The notes under the pieces were generated by a model. That model was not told the origin of the DNA and made no database searches. It was given only the letters and a program-made list of their open reading frames with translations. DNA of 26,818 nt from a virus: IMG/VR virus record IMGVR_UViG_3300038701_001591, positions 1 through 26,818 of that record; one strand, written 5' to 3'. Positions 802-6,838 of the stretch are shown one piece after another. The first letter of the stretch is position 1. The number at the start of each line of letters is the position of its first letter. The translations under genes and the position numbers were made by a program.

Positions 802-807
802 AAAGGA
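802..807 (+). promoter_or_regulatory. Ribosome binding site that selects a GTG start
   Basis: AAAGGA at 802-807 is the only Shine-Dalgarno-like sequence here. It runs into the ATG at 807-809, which leaves no spacing for that start, but it sits 8 bases before the in-frame GTG at 816. This favours GTG 816 as the true start of the ParB-methyltransferase gene. Confidence 0.6.
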
Positions 808-815
808 TGAACTTC

Positions 816-2168
816 GTGAGCATTGAATACCGTACAGTCCCAATTGAGTCTATCATCGTCCACCGGGCTGCGCGCCAACGTCGGGAACTTCCTGCCCTTG
901 ACCAACTCGCTGAGAGCATTTCCCGCATCGGCGTAATCAATCCTCCCGTGGTTAATCAAGACCTTGAGCTAATCGCAGGCGAACGTCGCTTCACAGTCTG
1001 TCGTGACATCCTTCACCACACTCACATAACCGTAGCGGTACGCGAGACCGAGGCCACACATGAAGAACGGTTCATCGAGCTGGCCGAGAATGTAGAGCGG
1101 GAAGAGCTGGACTGGAAGGATAAGTGCTTTGCAGTGGAGGAATACCACAACCTACGCATTTCCGCCGAGGAGGAATGGACTGTAGGCATGACTGCCGAGG
1201 CACTTGGCATCGACCTATCCACAGCCGCTCGCCACATTAATCTTGCCGCCGAACTTAACGCAGGCACAAAACTTATTTGCGAAGCCGACAAGTACTCCGT
1301 AGCCCGAAACATTCTCGAGCGCCTTCGCGAACGTCGTGCTCAAGCAGACCAAGATCGACTCGAGGCAATGATCAACGGCGAACCTGCTCCAGAGGTGGAA
1401 GAAGAGTTGGATGTATCCGATCTACTTTCTGAACCTGATACTCCCACTCCCACTCCCATCATTCCCAACGAACCCGAGACTTCCCCTAACCCTTTCCGTT
1501 GCACAGACTTTCACGTCTTCGTTGACAACTACAAAGGGGAGAAGTTTAACTTCATCCACTGTGACTTCCCTTATGGCGTTAATGCAAATAAGCACAAGCA
1601 AGGGGCGTCAGATAAATTCGGAGGATATGCGGATAGCGCAGACGTTTACTTCGCCTTACTTTCCTCCCTATCTCGCGCAATGAAAAACGTGGTATCCCCT
1701 TCGGCCCACCTCATGTTCTGGTACAGCATGGATCACCACAATACCACCGTGCAGGCACTCACCGACATGGGCTGGAAGGTAAACCCCTTTCCCCTTATCT
1801 GGTTTCGCAATGATAACTCCGGCATCATGCCAGACCCCAAACGTGGCCCTCGCCGCAATTATGAAACCGCATTGATCGCCAGTCGCAATGATCGCAAGAT
1901 CATCCAAGGTGTCTCCAACGTATCCGCTCACCCAAACACCAAACACATTCACATGAGTGAGAAGCCGATCCCAGTCCTCAAGCATTTCTTCCGCATGTTC
2001 GTGGATGAAACTACCCGAATGCTCGACCCAACTATGGGCAGCGGCAATGCAGTTGTCTTGGCCGAACACCTTGGCGCTTTCGCTCGCGGCCTTGAGCGGG
2101 ATAAAGAGTTCTACAACAACGCTCGCAACGCTTACATGCGCGGCGACTACGACTTGGAGGATTTTTAA
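816..2168 (+). CDS. ParB-domain / beta-class DNA methyltransferase fusion
   Basis: From the GTG at 816 the protein is 450 residues; the ATG at 807 would add three. The first about 95 residues are a ParB/Sulfiredoxin-type domain with the signature LIAGERR (GERR at 55-58), followed by a helix-turn-helix-like stretch (TAEALGIDLSTAARHI, about 125-145). A Pro- and Thr-rich linker (TPTPTPIIP) leads to a DNA methyltransferase. Motif IV appears as DFPYG (Asp250) and the SAM-binding motif as LDPTMGSG (Asp404). Motif IV before motif I is the beta-class order, used by N6-adenine and N4-cytosine enzymes. The canonical DPPY has Phe instead of the first Pro. No restriction endonuclease is nearby, so this is probably an orphan methyltransferase protecting or marking phage DNA, with the ParB domain giving DNA binding. 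Target sequence unknown. Confidence 0.85.
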   Translation: MSIEYRTVPIESIIVHRAARQRRELPALDQLAESISRIGVINPPVVNQDLELIAGERRFTVCRDILHHTHITVAVRETEATHEERFIELAENVEREELDWKDKCFAVEEYHNLRISAEEEWTVGMTAEALGIDLSTAARHINLAAELNAGTKLICEADKYSVARNILERLRERRAQADQDRLEAMINGEPAPEVEEELDVSDLLSEPDTPTPTPIIPNEPETSPNPFRCTDFHVFVDNYKGEKFNFIHCDFPYGVNANKHKQGASDKFGGYADSADVYFALLSSLSRAMKNVVSPSAHLMFWYSMDHHNTTVQALTDMGWKVNPFPLIWFRNDNSGIMPDPKRGPRRNYETALIASRNDRKIIQGVSNVSAHPNTKHIHMSEKPIPVLKHFFRMFVDETTRMLDPTMGSGNAVVLAEHLGAFARGLERDKEFYNNARNAYMRGDYDLEDF

Positions 2169-2398
2169 TGACGGACTATACCAACCCTGCAAAGCGCCCG
2201 ACGTTTGACATCAAGCTGGTGCCGCATACAGTCTGGGAGAATGATGAACTGGGTAAGCCTATCAAGAAAGTGAAATGGCGGGCAGACCTATTTGTTATGC
2301 GTGTTACAGGAATTGATGAAGATCATCACGCAATTGGTGAGACACCTTCCGGTGCATTGCTTGAACTCGCCTTGTACTACAAAGAACTTCAGCTATGA
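2168..2398 (+). CDS. Hypothetical 76-aa protein
   Basis: Not recognised. The ATG overlaps the methyltransferase TAA by one base (TAATG) and has a good GGAGG site at 2156-2160, so it is probably translated and coupled. Its own stop overlaps the next start (ATGA at 2395-2398). The protein is small and soluble with no membrane segment. It looks beta-strand rich, with alternating hydrophobic residues such as WRADLFVMRVTGI. The position between the methyltransferase and the exonuclease suggests an accessory role in DNA metabolism, but nothing in the sequence shows which. Confidence 0.7.
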   Translation: MTDYTNPAKRPTFDIKLVPHTVWENDELGKPIKKVKWRADLFVMRVTGIDEDHHAIGETPSGALLELALYYKELQL

Positions 2399-3432
2399 CT
2401 GACCTTCTCATAGTCGGAGACTTTATGTCCCGCAAAGATATGGAAGAGGGCGGTATCTTCTCCGACGGCCTCGGCAAGATGCTGAAAGCATTCCTCCGCG
2501 AGCGAGGTATCGACCCACGTTCCGTTGAGTTCTACAACGTAATGAATGACGTGCCTTCACCTCGCGCCACCTTGGATCAGTTGCTCGGCAAGAAAACTGA
2601 GGGCATTCCAAACATGAAGCATATTAAGAAAGGGAAGTACGTTAAGGCTGAGTACCTCCCCCACGTGGAGAAACTTTGGCGCAAGGTAAACTACCTCAAG
2701 CCCAACCTTATCCTTGCGCTTGGAGACCTACCCACATGGGCGTTGTGCAAAGGGGACAACCCTATCGACTCAGCCCGTGGCCGGATCACAGAGGGCAACA
2801 GCGCTATCGGCGGACGCAAGGTACTTCCCACCTATAACATTAAGCAGGTTGTCGCCGACTGGGCGCTTAGAGTAATCCTATTCTCCGATCTAGAGAAAGC
2901 CGCACGGGAGATGTGCTTCCCAGAAATGCGGCGACCCCAGCGCTTCCTTCACATCGCGCCTTCTCTCGAGGATATGGAGGACTTCTACAACGAGTATCTT
3001 GTGCCCTGTACTCATATCGCCAGTGACATTGAAACCAAAGGCACCATGATCACCTGTGTTAGCTTTGCCCCAACGGAGGACCGAGCCCTTGTCGTACCCT
3101 TCTACTCTCAACAGTCTGCCGATGGTAATTATTGGCCCAGTGCTAAGGAGGAAGCCCTCGCTTGGAGATTTGTACAACGTTGCCTCTCCATGGGTAAGGT
3201 CGTCGGTGGACAGAATTACCAATACGACATGCAATATGAGTGGCGTGAAATGGGGATACCAAATCCTGATTTTGGATACGATACTATGCTTCTCCACCAT
3301 GTCCTTCAGCCAGAACTCCGCAAGGGCTTGGGCTTCCTTGCCTCCATATACACCGATGAGATAGCTTGGAAAGGGATGCACAAAGTATCCGCCAGCGACC
3401 GTACAACTAAGAAAGGAGATGGAGATGAGTGA
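2395..3432 (+). CDS. UDG-like domain fused to the N-terminal part of a PolA 3'-5' exonuclease
   Basis: 345 residues in two parts. Residues 1 to about 170 have the uracil-DNA glycosylase-like fold seen at the N-terminus of some phage family A polymerases such as SPO1. Signs are LLIVGDFM at the start, NLILALGDLPTWAL, ARGRI and VLPTYN. The family-4 motif with His (T-x-H-P) is TYNIK here, so glycosylase activity is doubtful. From about residue 195 comes a DnaQ-like exonuclease: Exo I is SDIET (Asp211, Glu213) and Exo II is NYQYD (Asn274 to Asp278), followed by a YDTMLLHHVL helix. The protein ends before the Exo III Tyr-x3-Asp motif, which is encoded at the start of the polymerase gene at 4061. 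Start and stop are both overlapped by neighbours. Probably works as a complex with that polymerase. Confidence 0.85.
   Translation: MTDLLIVGDFMSRKDMEEGGIFSDGLGKMLKAFLRERGIDPRSVEFYNVMNDVPSPRATLDQLLGKKTEGIPNMKHIKKGKYVKAEYLPHVEKLWRKVNYLKPNLILALGDLPTWALCKGDNPIDSARGRITEGNSAIGGRKVLPTYNIKQVVADWALRVILFSDLEKAAREMCFPEMRRPQRFLHIAPSLEDMEDFYNEYLVPCTHIASDIETKGTMITCVSFAPTEDRALVVPFYSQQSADGNYWPSAKEEALAWRFVQRCLSMGKVVGGQNYQYDMQYEWREMGIPNPDFGYDTMLLHHVLQPELRKGLGFLASIYTDEIAWKGMHKVSASDRTTKKGDGDE
3412..3418 (+). promoter_or_regulatory. Ribosome binding site of the 95-aa gene
   Basis: AAAGGAG at 3412-3418 lies inside the end of the exonuclease gene, 6 bases before the ATG at 3425. A second in-frame ATG at 3419 directly abuts the site and is too close. 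This fixes the start of the next gene at 3425. Confidence 0.6.
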
Positions 3433-3712
3433 CTCTATTATCAAACTCGGCACAATGGAAACCTTAACAATCCAGGACCACAGCGCCGCCGACTTCAACG
3501 TAGGGCAGTACACGATGGACGTGAATGTGGAGGAAAATTTCCTTCGTGCCAGCTCCGACAAGCCGGCTTTCATTAAGCACCAAATTTCATCCTACTTGGC
3601 GCACTGCATTCAGGAAACCACTGTCCCCTCTCACCTTTGGTTCTTCACGCCCGAGCCAGTCGTACTCAAGAACATTCCATCCTTCCCGCAAGTTTTGCTA
3701 TTCGGAGTTTAA
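3425..3712 (+). CDS. Hypothetical 95-aa protein between the two polymerase pieces
   Basis: Not recognised. The gene overlaps the end of the exonuclease gene by 8 bases in another frame and has a convincing AAAGGAG site. The protein has a beta-rich N-terminal half (METLTIQDHSAADFNVG, then YTMDVNV) and a more helical middle (AFIKHQISSYLAHCIQ). It has no membrane segment, zinc site or nuclease motif that I can see, and it does not look like a HNH or GIY-YIG homing endonuclease. Its place between two halves of one enzyme is the main point of interest. It could be a replication accessory protein or a passenger gene. Confidence 0.65.
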   Translation: MSDSIIKLGTMETLTIQDHSAADFNVGQYTMDVNVEENFLRASSDKPAFIKHQISSYLAHCIQETTVPSHLWFFTPEPVVLKNIPSFPQVLLFGV

Positions 3713-3713
3713 C

Positions 3714-4064
3714 ATGATCTACCTAGCCTCCCCATACTCCCACCCCGATCCAAGCGTGATCGAGTCTCGCGTAGAGCAGACCAAACAAGCGATGTATCAA
3801 TTGCTATCCCAAGGCTACGTTATCTTCTCCCCTATTCTAATGCTGCACGAAACCTGCAAGTCGTACAACATGCCGGGCGAAGCAAAGGATTGGGTTGAGT
3901 TTAATTCTGTCTTCCTCTCACGCAGTGACTCCATGTTTGTTCTCTGCATCGAAGGCTGGCGACAAAGCGTAGGCATCGGACATGAGATACTAGAAGCGCA
4001 ACTAGGCGGTGTTCCAGTCCACTACGTAGACGTGCTTGGAAATTTTGTGGAGCCACTTCTATGA
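3714..4064 (+). CDS. DUF1937 family protein
   Basis: 116 residues starting MIYLASPYSHPDP, the characteristic beginning of DUF1937, a small Rossmann-like family related to nucleoside 2-deoxyribosyltransferase-like proteins (a similarity of fold; activity is not shown for this protein). Other matching features are the VESRVEQT-type helix (residues about 17-25), VIFSPILMLHE, a SDSMFVL strand and the HEILEAQ helix near the C-terminus. The ATG lies 1 base after the upstream TAA, and the stop overlaps the polymerase start as ATGA. Such genes are common in phage nucleotide-metabolism regions, so a role in nucleotide turnover is possible. A longer frame from 3525 is possible but would run through the upstream gene and has no reason to be used. 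Confidence 0.8.
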   Translation: MIYLASPYSHPDPSVIESRVEQTKQAMYQLLSQGYVIFSPILMLHETCKSYNMPGEAKDWVEFNSVFLSRSDSMFVLCIEGWRQSVGIGHEILEAQLGGVPVHYVDVLGNFVEPLL

Positions 4065-5626
4065 AGATCATCGACACCAGCCAACTTGTCACCGACGAAC
4101 AACTCGCAGCCCTCACTCCCGATGAAACCTATTGGGTGTACAATGGGCTTGACTCCTGTATCACCGAGGAAATTCGGCAGAAACTTACCGCCCAGTTGGA
4201 CGACGTAACTCGCCCCATGTACGAGCACACCATTCGTATGCAGGCTCCTATCATGGACATGATGCTGCGAGGGATTAAGGTAGATGAAAGCAACCGTAAG
4301 GCTGCCCTTGCTAAAGCCGAGCACGAAAAGCGGCGGCTTCAAGACCTCCTCAATCGCTTGACTAAGGAGGGGCTGGGCTTGGAAAAACCACTAAACCCCG
4401 GTTCCCATACACAGGTAAAGTGGTTCTTCTACGAGTTCCTTGGCCTCAAGGTAATCAAAAAGCGCAACACCAAAGGCTTCTATGCCCCGGCAGCAGATAG
4501 GGAAACCCTTGAAAAACTCCAGCAGTACTTCATCGCCCAACCATTCGTTCAGCTTATTCTCGCCCTCCGCGATCAGAGAAAGATCATTGGCTTTATCAAA
4601 ACTCCGACAGACCCTGATGGTAAACTACGCTGTAGTTTCAGCTTGGCAGGCACAAATACGGGAAGACTTAACTCTTCCTTCTCCGACTTCGGAACAGGCA
4701 CCAACCTCCAAAACGTAGACAACAACTTGCGCTACATGTTCATCGCGGATAAGGGGAAAATCCTTGTTAACATCGACCTCGAACAAGCAGACTCGCGCAA
4801 CGTTGGAGCGCTTTGTTGGGACTATTTCTACGACGATCATGGACCCGAGTTTGCTGGAAGCTATCTGGACGCTTGCGAGTCAGGCGACCTTCACACTACG
4901 GTTTGCAGAATGGGGTGGACCCACTTGGATTGGCCAGAGGACCGTGCGCTATGGCGCCCTGTTGCAGATGGATTGGCCTACCGTACTTTCTCTTACAGGG
5001 ACATGGCGAAGAAGCTGGGACATGGAACTAATTATTATGGCCAGCCTCCCACCATGTCAATGCACACGAAAATTCCCGTCGCGGAAATCGTATCTTTCCA
5101 GCACAACTACTTTGGCGCTTTCCCCTGTATCCCTGCGTGGCACAAGGAAACAATCCACAGGCTACAAACTACAGGGCAGCTTACTCACCTATTCGGAAGG
5201 CGGAGAAGTTTCTTCAAGCGATTGGACGACCAGTCTACAATTAATGCTGCGATCGCGTACTGCCCACAAGGCATGACGGGGGAGGAGATTAACCACGGCA
5301 TTCTTAACTTATTCACTCATCCCGATATCGAGTTGCTTATCCAGGTTCACGACTCAATCCTCTTCCAAGTCCCTATAGACAAAGTCAACGCGCTTGTGCC
5401 TATCGCACTCGAATTGCTTAAGGTAGAAATAGAGCTTCGCGGCGGGCGCAAATTCCACGTACCCCTTGAGGCGGAGACGGGATATAATTGGGGCAAGCGG
5501 AAACTTAACAAAGACGGCAGCCTCAAGCAGAATGAATACGGCCTAACCACATGGACAGGGGAAGAAACCCGATCCCCTCCACGAAAACTAATGCAGAAGC
5601 AAGTGACACTTGCAGAGTATCTCTAA
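4061..5626 (+). CDS. Family A DNA polymerase, polymerase piece carrying Exo III
   Basis: 521 residues. The protein starts in the exonuclease domain: Exo III is YNGLD (Tyr27, Asp31), the partner of Exo I and II on the protein encoded at 2395-3432. The polymerase fold follows. Motif A is NIDLEQADSR (Asp239). Motif B, the O-helix, is RDMAKKLGHGTNYYG, with Arg313 and Lys317; His321 occupies the position of Escherichia coli Phe762, and Tyr325 that of Tyr766. Motif C is QVHDS (His430, Asp431). All polymerase catalytic residues are present, so this is the replicative polymerase. It is short because the Exo I and II part is on a separate gene. The ATG overlaps the DUF1937 stop (ATGA), with a GGAG site about 10 bases upstream. 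A Lys-rich C-terminal tail after the fold is of unknown use. Confidence 0.93.
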   Translation: MKIIDTSQLVTDEQLAALTPDETYWVYNGLDSCITEEIRQKLTAQLDDVTRPMYEHTIRMQAPIMDMMLRGIKVDESNRKAALAKAEHEKRRLQDLLNRLTKEGLGLEKPLNPGSHTQVKWFFYEFLGLKVIKKRNTKGFYAPAADRETLEKLQQYFIAQPFVQLILALRDQRKIIGFIKTPTDPDGKLRCSFSLAGTNTGRLNSSFSDFGTGTNLQNVDNNLRYMFIADKGKILVNIDLEQADSRNVGALCWDYFYDDHGPEFAGSYLDACESGDLHTTVCRMGWTHLDWPEDRALWRPVADGLAYRTFSYRDMAKKLGHGTNYYGQPPTMSMHTKIPVAEIVSFQHNYFGAFPCIPAWHKETIHRLQTTGQLTHLFGRRRSFFKRLDDQSTINAAIAYCPQGMTGEEINHGILNLFTHPDIELLIQVHDSILFQVPIDKVNALVPIALELLKVEIELRGGRKFHVPLEAETGYNWGKRKLNKDGSLKQNEYGLTTWTGEETRSPPRKLMQKQVTLAEYL

Positions 5627-5635
5627 GGAAAACTG

Positions 5636-6838
5636 ATGCCTAGAAAGCTGGACAATTGGGTAGACGCCTTCGTGGACTACACGGACAACCTACCCTCGCC
5701 AGAACTTTTTCGTAAGTGGTGTGCGATTAGCTGCGTTGCGGGTGTGCTTGAGCGCAAGACATGGGTAACTGCTATGGGCAGTGCTCTCTACCCTACCATG
5801 TACATCATCCTCGTGGCCCCACCGGGAGTGGGTAAGACTGTGGTAACCTCCCTTGTCCGTAAAATCTGGGCGGAAATTCCTGACCAATACCTTGCCGCAA
5901 GCAGTGTAACCAAGGCCTCTCTGATCGACGACTTGCGGGAAGCAGAGCGCACTATCATCCGGCCACAAGAAACGCCGAGCACGCAAGTATTCCACTCCCT
6001 CAAAATCGCGGCCAACGAACTAGGGGTGTTTATCCCCAGCTACGAAAACGATTTTATGAACGTGCTTACAGACATCTACGATGGGCATGGGTATTCCGAA
6101 CGTCGCCGCACAAAAGACATCAACTTCAACCTCGAGAAACCTCAGATCAATTTCCTTGCCGCTACCACTCCCGGATACCTTAACAACATGCTGCCGGAAG
6201 GCGCTTGGGATCAGGGCTTTCTTTCCCGCACCATGCTTGTGTACTCCGGAGACCTTCGCCTGATCTCTCCCTTCTCCAACCTTCGCACAAAGACGGATGA
6301 GCTTAAGCCCCTTGTGGCCGATCTTAAGTCAATCGCCCTCATGTACGGTGAATTCAAATTCGAGGAAGAAGCTGCTAACGCCCTTGTCCAGTGGCACCTT
6401 GGTGGCGGGAAGCCTACCCCAGACCACCCCAAACTGCACAACTACCTAACCCGGCGTACATCGCACTTGATTAAACTTTGCATGATCGCCAGTGCTGCGT
6501 CCGGCCCCGGCTTCACAATCACCCTTGACCATTACACAACCGCGATGGACTGGCTTATTGAACTCGAGCACTATATCCCCGACATTTTCAAGTCAATGCA
6601 GACGGGTGGCGATAGCAAGGCCATCGAGGACACATGGTACTTTGCGATGAAGCTGTATGCCTCAACCAAAAAACCAATTGAAGAACGGAAGATTATACAG
6701 TACCTGCAACAGCGTGTGCCCGCCCACAGCATTGATCAAGTGATCACTATCATGCTCCGGGCGAAGCTTATGCAAGAGGTTGAGGTGAATAAGATCGGAA
6801 AATGCTACATCCCGAAAAGCGCCCCTACGGATATTTAA
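5636..6838 (+). CDS. DUF3987-like P-loop helicase/ATPase
   Basis: 400 residues. The Walker A motif is APPGVGKT (residues 61-68). An acidic residue in AANELGVF (Glu128) is the likely Walker B-type residue, and FLSRTMLVYSG is a typical downstream motif with a possible arginine finger. This is the pattern of DUF3987 ATPases, which in phages sit with DNA polymerases and are thought to act as replicative helicases; here that is inferred from context. The last about 60 residues (EERKIIQYLQ to IMLRAKLMQEVEV) look like a winged-helix domain. The ATG lies 9 bases after the polymerase stop with an AAGGAAAA site. The TAA stop overlaps the TAA of the convergent tail-spike gene. Confidence 0.75.
   Translation: MPRKLDNWVDAFVDYTDNLPSPELFRKWCAISCVAGVLERKTWVTAMGSALYPTMYIILVAPPGVGKTVVTSLVRKIWAEIPDQYLAASSVTKASLIDDLREAERTIIRPQETPSTQVFHSLKIAANELGVFIPSYENDFMNVLTDIYDGHGYSERRRTKDINFNLEKPQINFLAATTPGYLNNMLPEGAWDQGFLSRTMLVYSGDLRLISPFSNLRTKTDELKPLVADLKSIALMYGEFKFEEEAANALVQWHLGGGKPTPDHPKLHNYLTRRTSHLIKLCMIASAASGPGFTITLDHYTTAMDWLIELEHYIPDIFKSMQTGGDSKAIEDTWYFAMKLYASTKKPIEERKIIQYLQQRVPAHSIDQVITIMLRAKLMQEVEVNKIGKCYIPKSAPTDI

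What the first reader, a model, noticed from the sequence alone, without database searches (positions are those of the whole stretch)
2395..5626. DNA polymerase split inside the proofreading domain, with two genes between the halves
Exo I (Asp211, Glu213) and Exo II (Asn274, Asp278) are on the 345-aa protein. Exo III (Tyr27, Asp31) and all polymerase motifs are on the 521-aa protein. From Exo II Asp278 to the end of the first protein are 67 residues, plus 31 to Asp31, giving about 98. This is close to the about 77 between the same residues in Klenow, so little or nothing seems to be lost. The proofreading site must therefore be assembled from two polypeptides, or the genes must be joined by RNA or protein splicing. 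Split T4-like (family B) polymerases are known; I cannot tell how often family A is split like this.
Basis: partly seen in the sequence, partly recalled or inferred. Interest (0 to 1): 0.72.

Follow-up and report, generated by a model that had tools for sequence, protein, structure and literature searches.

The report
Phage DNA polymerase made of two proteins
This phage, like a whole branch of related viruses, makes its DNA-copying enzyme as two separate proteins cut through the proofreading centre, so the error-correcting site must be completed by the two proteins coming together.

Summary
A family A DNA polymerase is cut between Exo II and Exo III. A 345-aa protein holds a uracil-glycosylase-like domain plus Exo I/II, and a 521-aa protein holds Exo III plus all polymerase motifs, with two unrelated genes between. 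It is not a sequencing error or an intron. The same cut occurs in 175 distinct gene pairs, including Caulobacter phage Kuura, whose first half is annotated 'hypothetical'. These form one well-supported clade (130 split rows against 41 fused rows: one change, SH-aLRT 99). No fused member was found inside it, although the halves lie from -8 to +5080 nt apart. In six members no gene lies between them, and each half still has its own stop and start. Fused UDG-exo-pol relatives lie outside the clade. Asp211, Glu213, Asn274, Asp278 (half 1) and Tyr27, Asp31 (half 2) are invariant in 130 of 130, down to 28-32% identity, under strong purifying selection. Both halves fold with high confidence. Best reading: a two-subunit polymerase with a composite proofreading site, assembled without splicing. 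Split polymerases are known, including family A cut elsewhere. I found no report of this cut fixed through a clade. Assembly and activity are inferred, not measured.

The parts
2395..3432 (+). Exo half, 345 aa: family-4 UDG-like fold (residues 1-177; the motif-B His is Asn148 here) followed by the first part of a DnaQ-type exonuclease domain with Exo I (D211, E213) and Exo II (N274, D278); last 17 residues predicted disordered
   Evidence: ORF; Pfam UDG 5.7e-05, just under its gathering score, and weak DNA_pol_A_exo1; PHROG 17 profile positions 482-788; AF2 pLDDT 91.4; VIA Z 18.4 to UDG 1ui1 and Z about 12 to EXD2 over 183-319; catalytic residues 130/130
3419..3712 (+). 97-aa orphan protein between the halves (start may be ATG 3425, after AAAGGAG); relatives only in near kin, absent or replaced elsewhere
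   Evidence: no Pfam or PHROG match; homologues in L010 and L012 at 52% and 30%; found between the halves together with the NDT-like gene in 20 of 118 split pairs
3714..4064 (+). 116-aa nucleoside 2-deoxyribosyltransferase-like protein (DUF1937/DUF7768), the commonest gene just before the pol half; its stop overlaps the pol-half start (ATGA)
   Evidence: Pfam DUF1937 5.5e-17, PHROG 355; present between the halves in 58 of 118 split pairs, with DUF7768-type relatives in others
4061..5626 (+). Pol half, 521 aa: new N-terminus (about 24 aa), Exo III helix (Y27, D31), then thumb, palm and fingers with motif A D239, O-helix R313/K317/Y325, motif C H430/D431
   Evidence: ORF; Pfam DNA_pol_A 2.8e-29; PHROG 17 positions 802-1244; AF2 pLDDT 93.7; aligns to Klenow 471-928, Z 31.0
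5636..6838 (+). Neighbouring DUF3987 primase/helicase-like gene that follows the pol half; replication-module context
   Evidence: Pfam DUF3987 4.5e-16, PHROG 14296 DNA primase 1.1e-47; a gene of similar size follows the pol half in Kuura, L010 and L012

Best explanation
The two genes encode the two subunits of one family A DNA polymerase. [quoted passage not shown] Inferred: the two chains are translated separately from one operon, fold as the models show, and dock non-covalently so that Exo III Tyr27/Asp31, carried on the N-terminal helix of the polymerase subunit, completes a two-metal exonuclease site formed by Asp211, Glu213 and Asp278 of the other subunit. The intervening genes are passengers that come and go at the junction.
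For: Same break in 175 distinct pairs and no fused member inside the clade. Tree: split 130 against fused 41 rows, 1 change, support 99; an earlier tree with a mixture model gives 99 for the 90 rows with this break. Exo I, II and III and polymerase catalytic residues are 130/130 invariant across two separate proteins. Both halves are under purifying selection, dN/dS about 0.02-0.13 in the informative pairs. Half 1 model pLDDT 91.4 ends before Exo III; half 2 model pLDDT 93.7 starts at Klenow 471, before Y497/D501. Junction spacing 86 residues against 66 in fused relatives. In six relatives the intervening genes are absent, yet a stop and start still separate the halves, including in-frame TAA|ATG in L073. 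Exo and pol distances correlate, r = 0.76.
Against: No physical interaction, complex model or enzyme activity was measured. The two models could not be docked with these tools. Inter-protein coupling analysis gave only about a twofold enrichment at the expected interface, which is not convincing with about 126 effective sequences. Correlated distances are expected for linked genes in any case.
Confidence: 0.85

Rival explanations
1. The gene is rejoined at the RNA level: the two intervening genes lie in a self-splicing or trans-spliced intron.
For: Introns and homing endonuclease genes are common in phage polymerase genes, and the authors of MEP401/402 considered one for their split family A polymerase (PMC10580990). 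HNH_3 genes sit in the gap in L087, L089, L097 and L098.
Against: No Rfam intron in the window or in 11 relatives. The intervening DNA is coding, differs between relatives and runs from -8 to 5080 nt. Both halves carry their own stop and start even with nothing between.
Confidence: 0.03
2. The two chains are ligated by protein trans-splicing (a split intein), as proposed for phage family B polymerases such as MIJ3.
For: Split inteins in phage polymerases are known (PMC6892783, PMC11923092). One clade member, L098, carries an intein-like in-frame insert of 284 aa inside the pol half.
Against: Half 1 has about 20 residues after the conserved Trp-Lys and half 2 about 24 before Exo III. These are too short for intein halves, and no intein-like block is present there.
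Confidence: 0.01
3. The halves are two independent enzymes: a DNA-binding UDG/exonuclease-like protein and a polymerase that lacks proofreading, so Exo III is a relic.
For: Polymerases without proofreading (for example Taq) exist. The window UDG domain has lost its motif-B His (Asn148; His in 89 of 130).
Against: Exo III Tyr27 and Asp31 sit on the pol half and are 130/130 invariant although polymerisation is not known to need them. Exo I/II are equally invariant on the other half. The exo half lies upstream of the pol half in every case seen.
Confidence: 0.08
4. The pol half and exo half are translated as one chain by frameshift, hopping or readthrough.
For: In L073 a single in-frame TAA separates the halves.
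Against: In many other members the frames differ, up to about 5 kb of other genes intervene, and the pol half has its own start (ATGA overlap in the window).
Confidence: 0.02

Closest known systems
Fused UDG-exo-pol family A polymerases of phages (Microcystis phage Mel-JY34, ctMlz233, Pseudomonas phage PaBG gp205)
   Same: Same domain order and, for Mel-JY34 and ctMlz233, homologous sequence with the same catalytic motifs; PaBG domain order as reported in PMC7412058
   Different: One continuous chain; no break between Exo II and Exo III
Split family A polymerase of OM43 phages MEP401/MEP402 (PMC10580990)
   Same: Family A polymerase on two ORFs with a small ORF between
   Different: Break lies inside the polymerase domain; the whole exonuclease domain is on the first ORF; an intron was suspected; homology to the window pair was not tested here
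Split T4-like gp43A/43B of Aeromonas phages 25 and 44RR (PMC2988022, citing Petrov et al. 2010)
   Same: Phage replicative polymerase on two genes; the two proteins co-purify and have polymerase activity
   Different: Family B; linked to a homing-endonuclease gene or an intercistronic untranslated sequence
Split B-type polymerase of Methanobacterium thermoautotrophicum (Kelman et al. 1999, as cited in PMC3984812)
   Same: DNA polymerase naturally split in two polypeptides
   Different: Archaeal family B
Caulobacter phage Kuura OQ067476 Kuura_029/Kuura_026
   Same: Same break and order, 34-37% identity to the two halves
   Different: Other intervening genes; first half annotated 'hypothetical protein' and not discussed
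ExnV1 (PDB 7r0t, PMC9629493)
   Same: Stand-alone exonuclease related to the family A exonuclease domain
   Different: Contains the complete site with Exo III on one chain; thought to be a truncated polymerase

Membership tests
DNA polymerase family A (Klenow-like) | Palm/fingers motifs A, B (O-helix) and C in a Klenow fold | tested here: met
   DNA_pol_A 2.8e-29; Z 31.0 to 1kfs over 411 residues; D239, K317, D431 130/130
DNA polymerase family A (Klenow-like) | 3'-5' exonuclease domain with Exo I, II, III (proofreading members only) | tested here: met
   All residues present and invariant, but distributed over two proteins; activity not measured
Phage UDG-exo-pol polymerases (PHROG 17) | Order UDG-like fold, exonuclease, polymerase with sequence homology | tested here: met
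   Both halves match consecutive stretches of PHROG 17; UDG fold Z 18.4; fused homologues align throughout
Phage UDG-exo-pol polymerases (PHROG 17) | Single polypeptide | tested here: not met
   Two ORFs with two genes between; the same in every clade member found
Uracil-DNA glycosylase family 4 (enzyme) | Family-4 level sequence match and motif-B His | tested here: not met
   NCBIfam TIGR00758 20 bits against cut-off 125; His148 is Asn in the window, His in 89 of 130; fold matches only
Intron- or intein-interrupted phage polymerase | Recognisable group I/II intron or intein blocks at the junction | tested here: not met
   No Rfam match; no room for intein halves at the junction
Split replicative polymerase that works as a non-covalent heterodimer (T4 43A/43B type of mechanism) | The two chains bind each other and restore activity | not testable with these tools
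   No complex prediction or biochemistry available

The most novel reading that the evidence does not exclude
The split is functional rather than merely tolerated. The UDG-exo subunit is a dissociable proofreading (and possibly uracil-sensing) subunit that docks on a polymerase subunit carrying the last catalytic helix, so that phages of this clade can vary proofreading by subunit level or exchange, comparable in organisation to the epsilon/alpha proofreading arrangement of bacterial replicases but with one active site shared between chains.
Probability: 0.15. Interest if true: 0.8.

Novelty: new variant of a known kind. Interest (0 to 1): 0.62.

Why it matters
It is a natural experiment in which a phage polymerase has kept its proofreading centre divided between two proteins across a large, diverse clade, with every catalytic residue conserved and no return to one chain among the members seen. 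It gives a clean test of whether an exonuclease active site can be assembled in trans, supplies a natural split point for engineering controllable proofreading in family A polymerases, and shows that the first half is annotated only as 'hypothetical' in the one annotated isolate found.

Tried and rejected
Intron or structured RNA at the junction: no Rfam hit in the window or 11 relatives. Split intein: too few residues at the new termini. Sequencing error: excluded by recurrence in 175 pairs. Homing endonuclease as the general cause: HNH_3 genes occur in only a few gaps (L087, L089, L097, L098), so they may be later arrivals. Docking of the two models and a complex prediction were not possible: single chains only, and joined sequences are not accepted. 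Literature: searches for split family A polymerases, ExnV1, UDG-exo-pol and T4 43A/B found no description of this break; the library lacks most subscription papers, and Czernecki et al. 2023 on family A subfamilies is not held.

Full report
What is there. The window is a 26.8-kb IMG/VR virus record of podovirus type: internal virion proteins, tail proteins and an amidase on the minus strand. The plus-strand replication module reads ParB/N6_N4-methyltransferase fusion (807-2168), small ORF, exo half (2395-3432), 97-aa orphan (3419-3712), DUF1937 deoxyribosyltransferase-like gene (3714-4064), pol half (4061-5626), DUF3987 primase/helicase (5636-6838). The genes are packed head to tail with small overlaps; the pol-half ATG overlaps the stop of the preceding gene (ATGA).

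The break. Both halves match consecutive stretches of the same phage polymerase profile (PHROG 17: positions 482-788 and 802-1244). Exo I (D211, E213) and Exo II (N274, D278) are on the first protein; Exo III (Y27, D31) and all polymerase motifs are on the second. In fused relatives the Exo II Asp to Exo III Tyr distance is 56-70 residues, median 66. In split members 62 residues follow the Exo II Asp and 24 precede the Exo III Tyr, together 86 (window 67 + 26). So nothing is missing, and about 20 residues of new termini have been added. The conserved end of half 1 is the stretch YT(D/N)ExxWK followed by a short charged tail; the conserved start of half 2 is M(K/R)IIxT.

Recurrence. In the 50,697-record annotated phage collection only Caulobacter phage Kuura was found with the same break, with two different genes between the halves and the first half annotated as hypothetical. 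In IMG/VR, profile searches brought in many more, plus two bacterial MAG contigs. After removal of duplicates, 175 distinct pairs have the two halves on separate ORFs, always exo half upstream, and no member of the clade is fused. The gap runs from -8 to 5080 nt, median 545. The search criterion was similarity to one half, which does not favour split over fused genes. One caveat: the tool keeps only the best 80 loci per scan, so rare fused members cannot be excluded.

History. A tree of the polymerase region with 130 split and 41 fused rows needs one change of state, on a branch with SH-aLRT 99. An earlier tree with a mixture model put the 90 rows with this break in one clade at 99; the only other 'split' row there, L006, is broken elsewhere. 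The root is not inferred, but single-chain UDG-exo-pol enzymes surround the clade, so one splitting event is the simplest account (inference). Six members have no gene between the halves, and the tree needs six changes for this state. Yet each half keeps its own stop and start: L073 reads ...GATTAA|ATGGCT... in frame; L107 and L316 overlap by 4 nt; L304, L314 and L318 abut within a few bases. Absence of the passengers has therefore not restored a single chain.

Selection and function. The exonuclease residues D211, E213, N274 and D278 and, on the other protein, Y27 and D31 are identical in 130 of 130 pairs whose proteins fall to 28-32% identity; polymerase residues D239, K317 and D431 are equally fixed. 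dN/dS is about 0.02-0.13 in the informative pairs for both halves (a few nearly identical pairs are too similar to be informative and reach 0.2). Exo III has no known role in polymerisation, so its conservation on the pol half is best explained by use together with the exo half. By contrast the UDG motif-B His is Asn in the window and His in only 89 of 130, so uracil excision by the window protein is doubtful.

Structure. AlphaFold2 models from 82-row alignments are confident: exo half pLDDT 91.4 with a disordered tail 329-345, pol half 93.7. The exo half matches family-4 uracil-DNA glycosylase over 1-177 (Z 18.4, 151 residues, 1.7 A) and DnaQ-type exonuclease over 183-319 (Z about 12). The pol half matches Klenow 1kfs over 471-928 (Z 31.0, 411 residues, 4.1 A). 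In Klenow, Exo II Asp424 lies before and Exo III Tyr497/Asp501 after that starting point (established knowledge of Klenow; the residues are also listed in PMC9629493), so the break falls between them.

How it most likely works. Shown: a shared break best explained by one event, two open frames under constraint, all catalytic residues kept. Inferred: the two chains dock so that the N-terminal helix of the pol half completes the exonuclease site. Splicing of RNA or protein is disfavoured. The analogous T4-type 43A/43B proteins co-purify and are active (PMC2988022), so assembly of a split polymerase is plausible. A coupling analysis gave only weak support.

Genes between. They are not constant: DUF1937/DUF7768 deoxyribosyltransferase-like genes are commonest, the 97-aa orphan occurs in near kin, and others include HNH_3 endonucleases, MazG-like and unknown genes. 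They look like passengers. An origin by a homing endonuclease cannot be shown or excluded.

Novelty. Split replicative polymerases are known in family B and, with another break, in family A phages MEP401/402 (PMC10580990). A break through the exonuclease domain that divides one active site between two proteins and is fixed across a large clade was not found in the papers searched. I call it a new variant of a known kind.

Noticed in passing
L098:3780-6185: In-frame 284-aa intein-like insert (begins CLTADHEVLTP, ends TGN before Ser) in the O-helix region of the pol half, while the exo half is still a separate gene; the closing HN is GN.
   Followed up: partly
L002 (Vibrio phage vB_VspS_VS-ABTNL-3) 3456-6590: A related UDG-exo-pol polymerase is split at another place, between the NLQN motif and motif A, with a 184-aa ORF (PVS_28, no Pfam match) between the parts.
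   Followed up: partly
L006 (MW202554.1) 1727-4364: Polymerase on two ORFs broken after Exo III, between the exonuclease and polymerase domains: a third break position in the wider family.
   Followed up: partly
L187:679-3383 and L233:4956-7627: Two fused-type relatives are interrupted at about profile column 200, near the start of the exonuclease part; a further break or a frameshift.
   Followed up: no
L104:6999-12080: Largest separation seen: about 5.1 kb between the exo half and the pol half.
   Followed up: no
L087, L089, L097, L098 between the halves: HNH_3 endonuclease genes sit in the gap, suggesting that the junction attracts mobile genes.
   Followed up: partly
window 807-2168: ParB N-terminal domain fused to an N6_N4 DNA methyltransferase; methylase or ParB-like genes lie just upstream of the polymerase in several relatives.
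   Followed up: no
window 2395-2926 (UDG-like domain): Family-4 UDG fold with the motif-B His replaced by Asn148; His is kept in only 89 of 130 clade members, so the role may be DNA or uracil binding rather than excision.
   Followed up: partly
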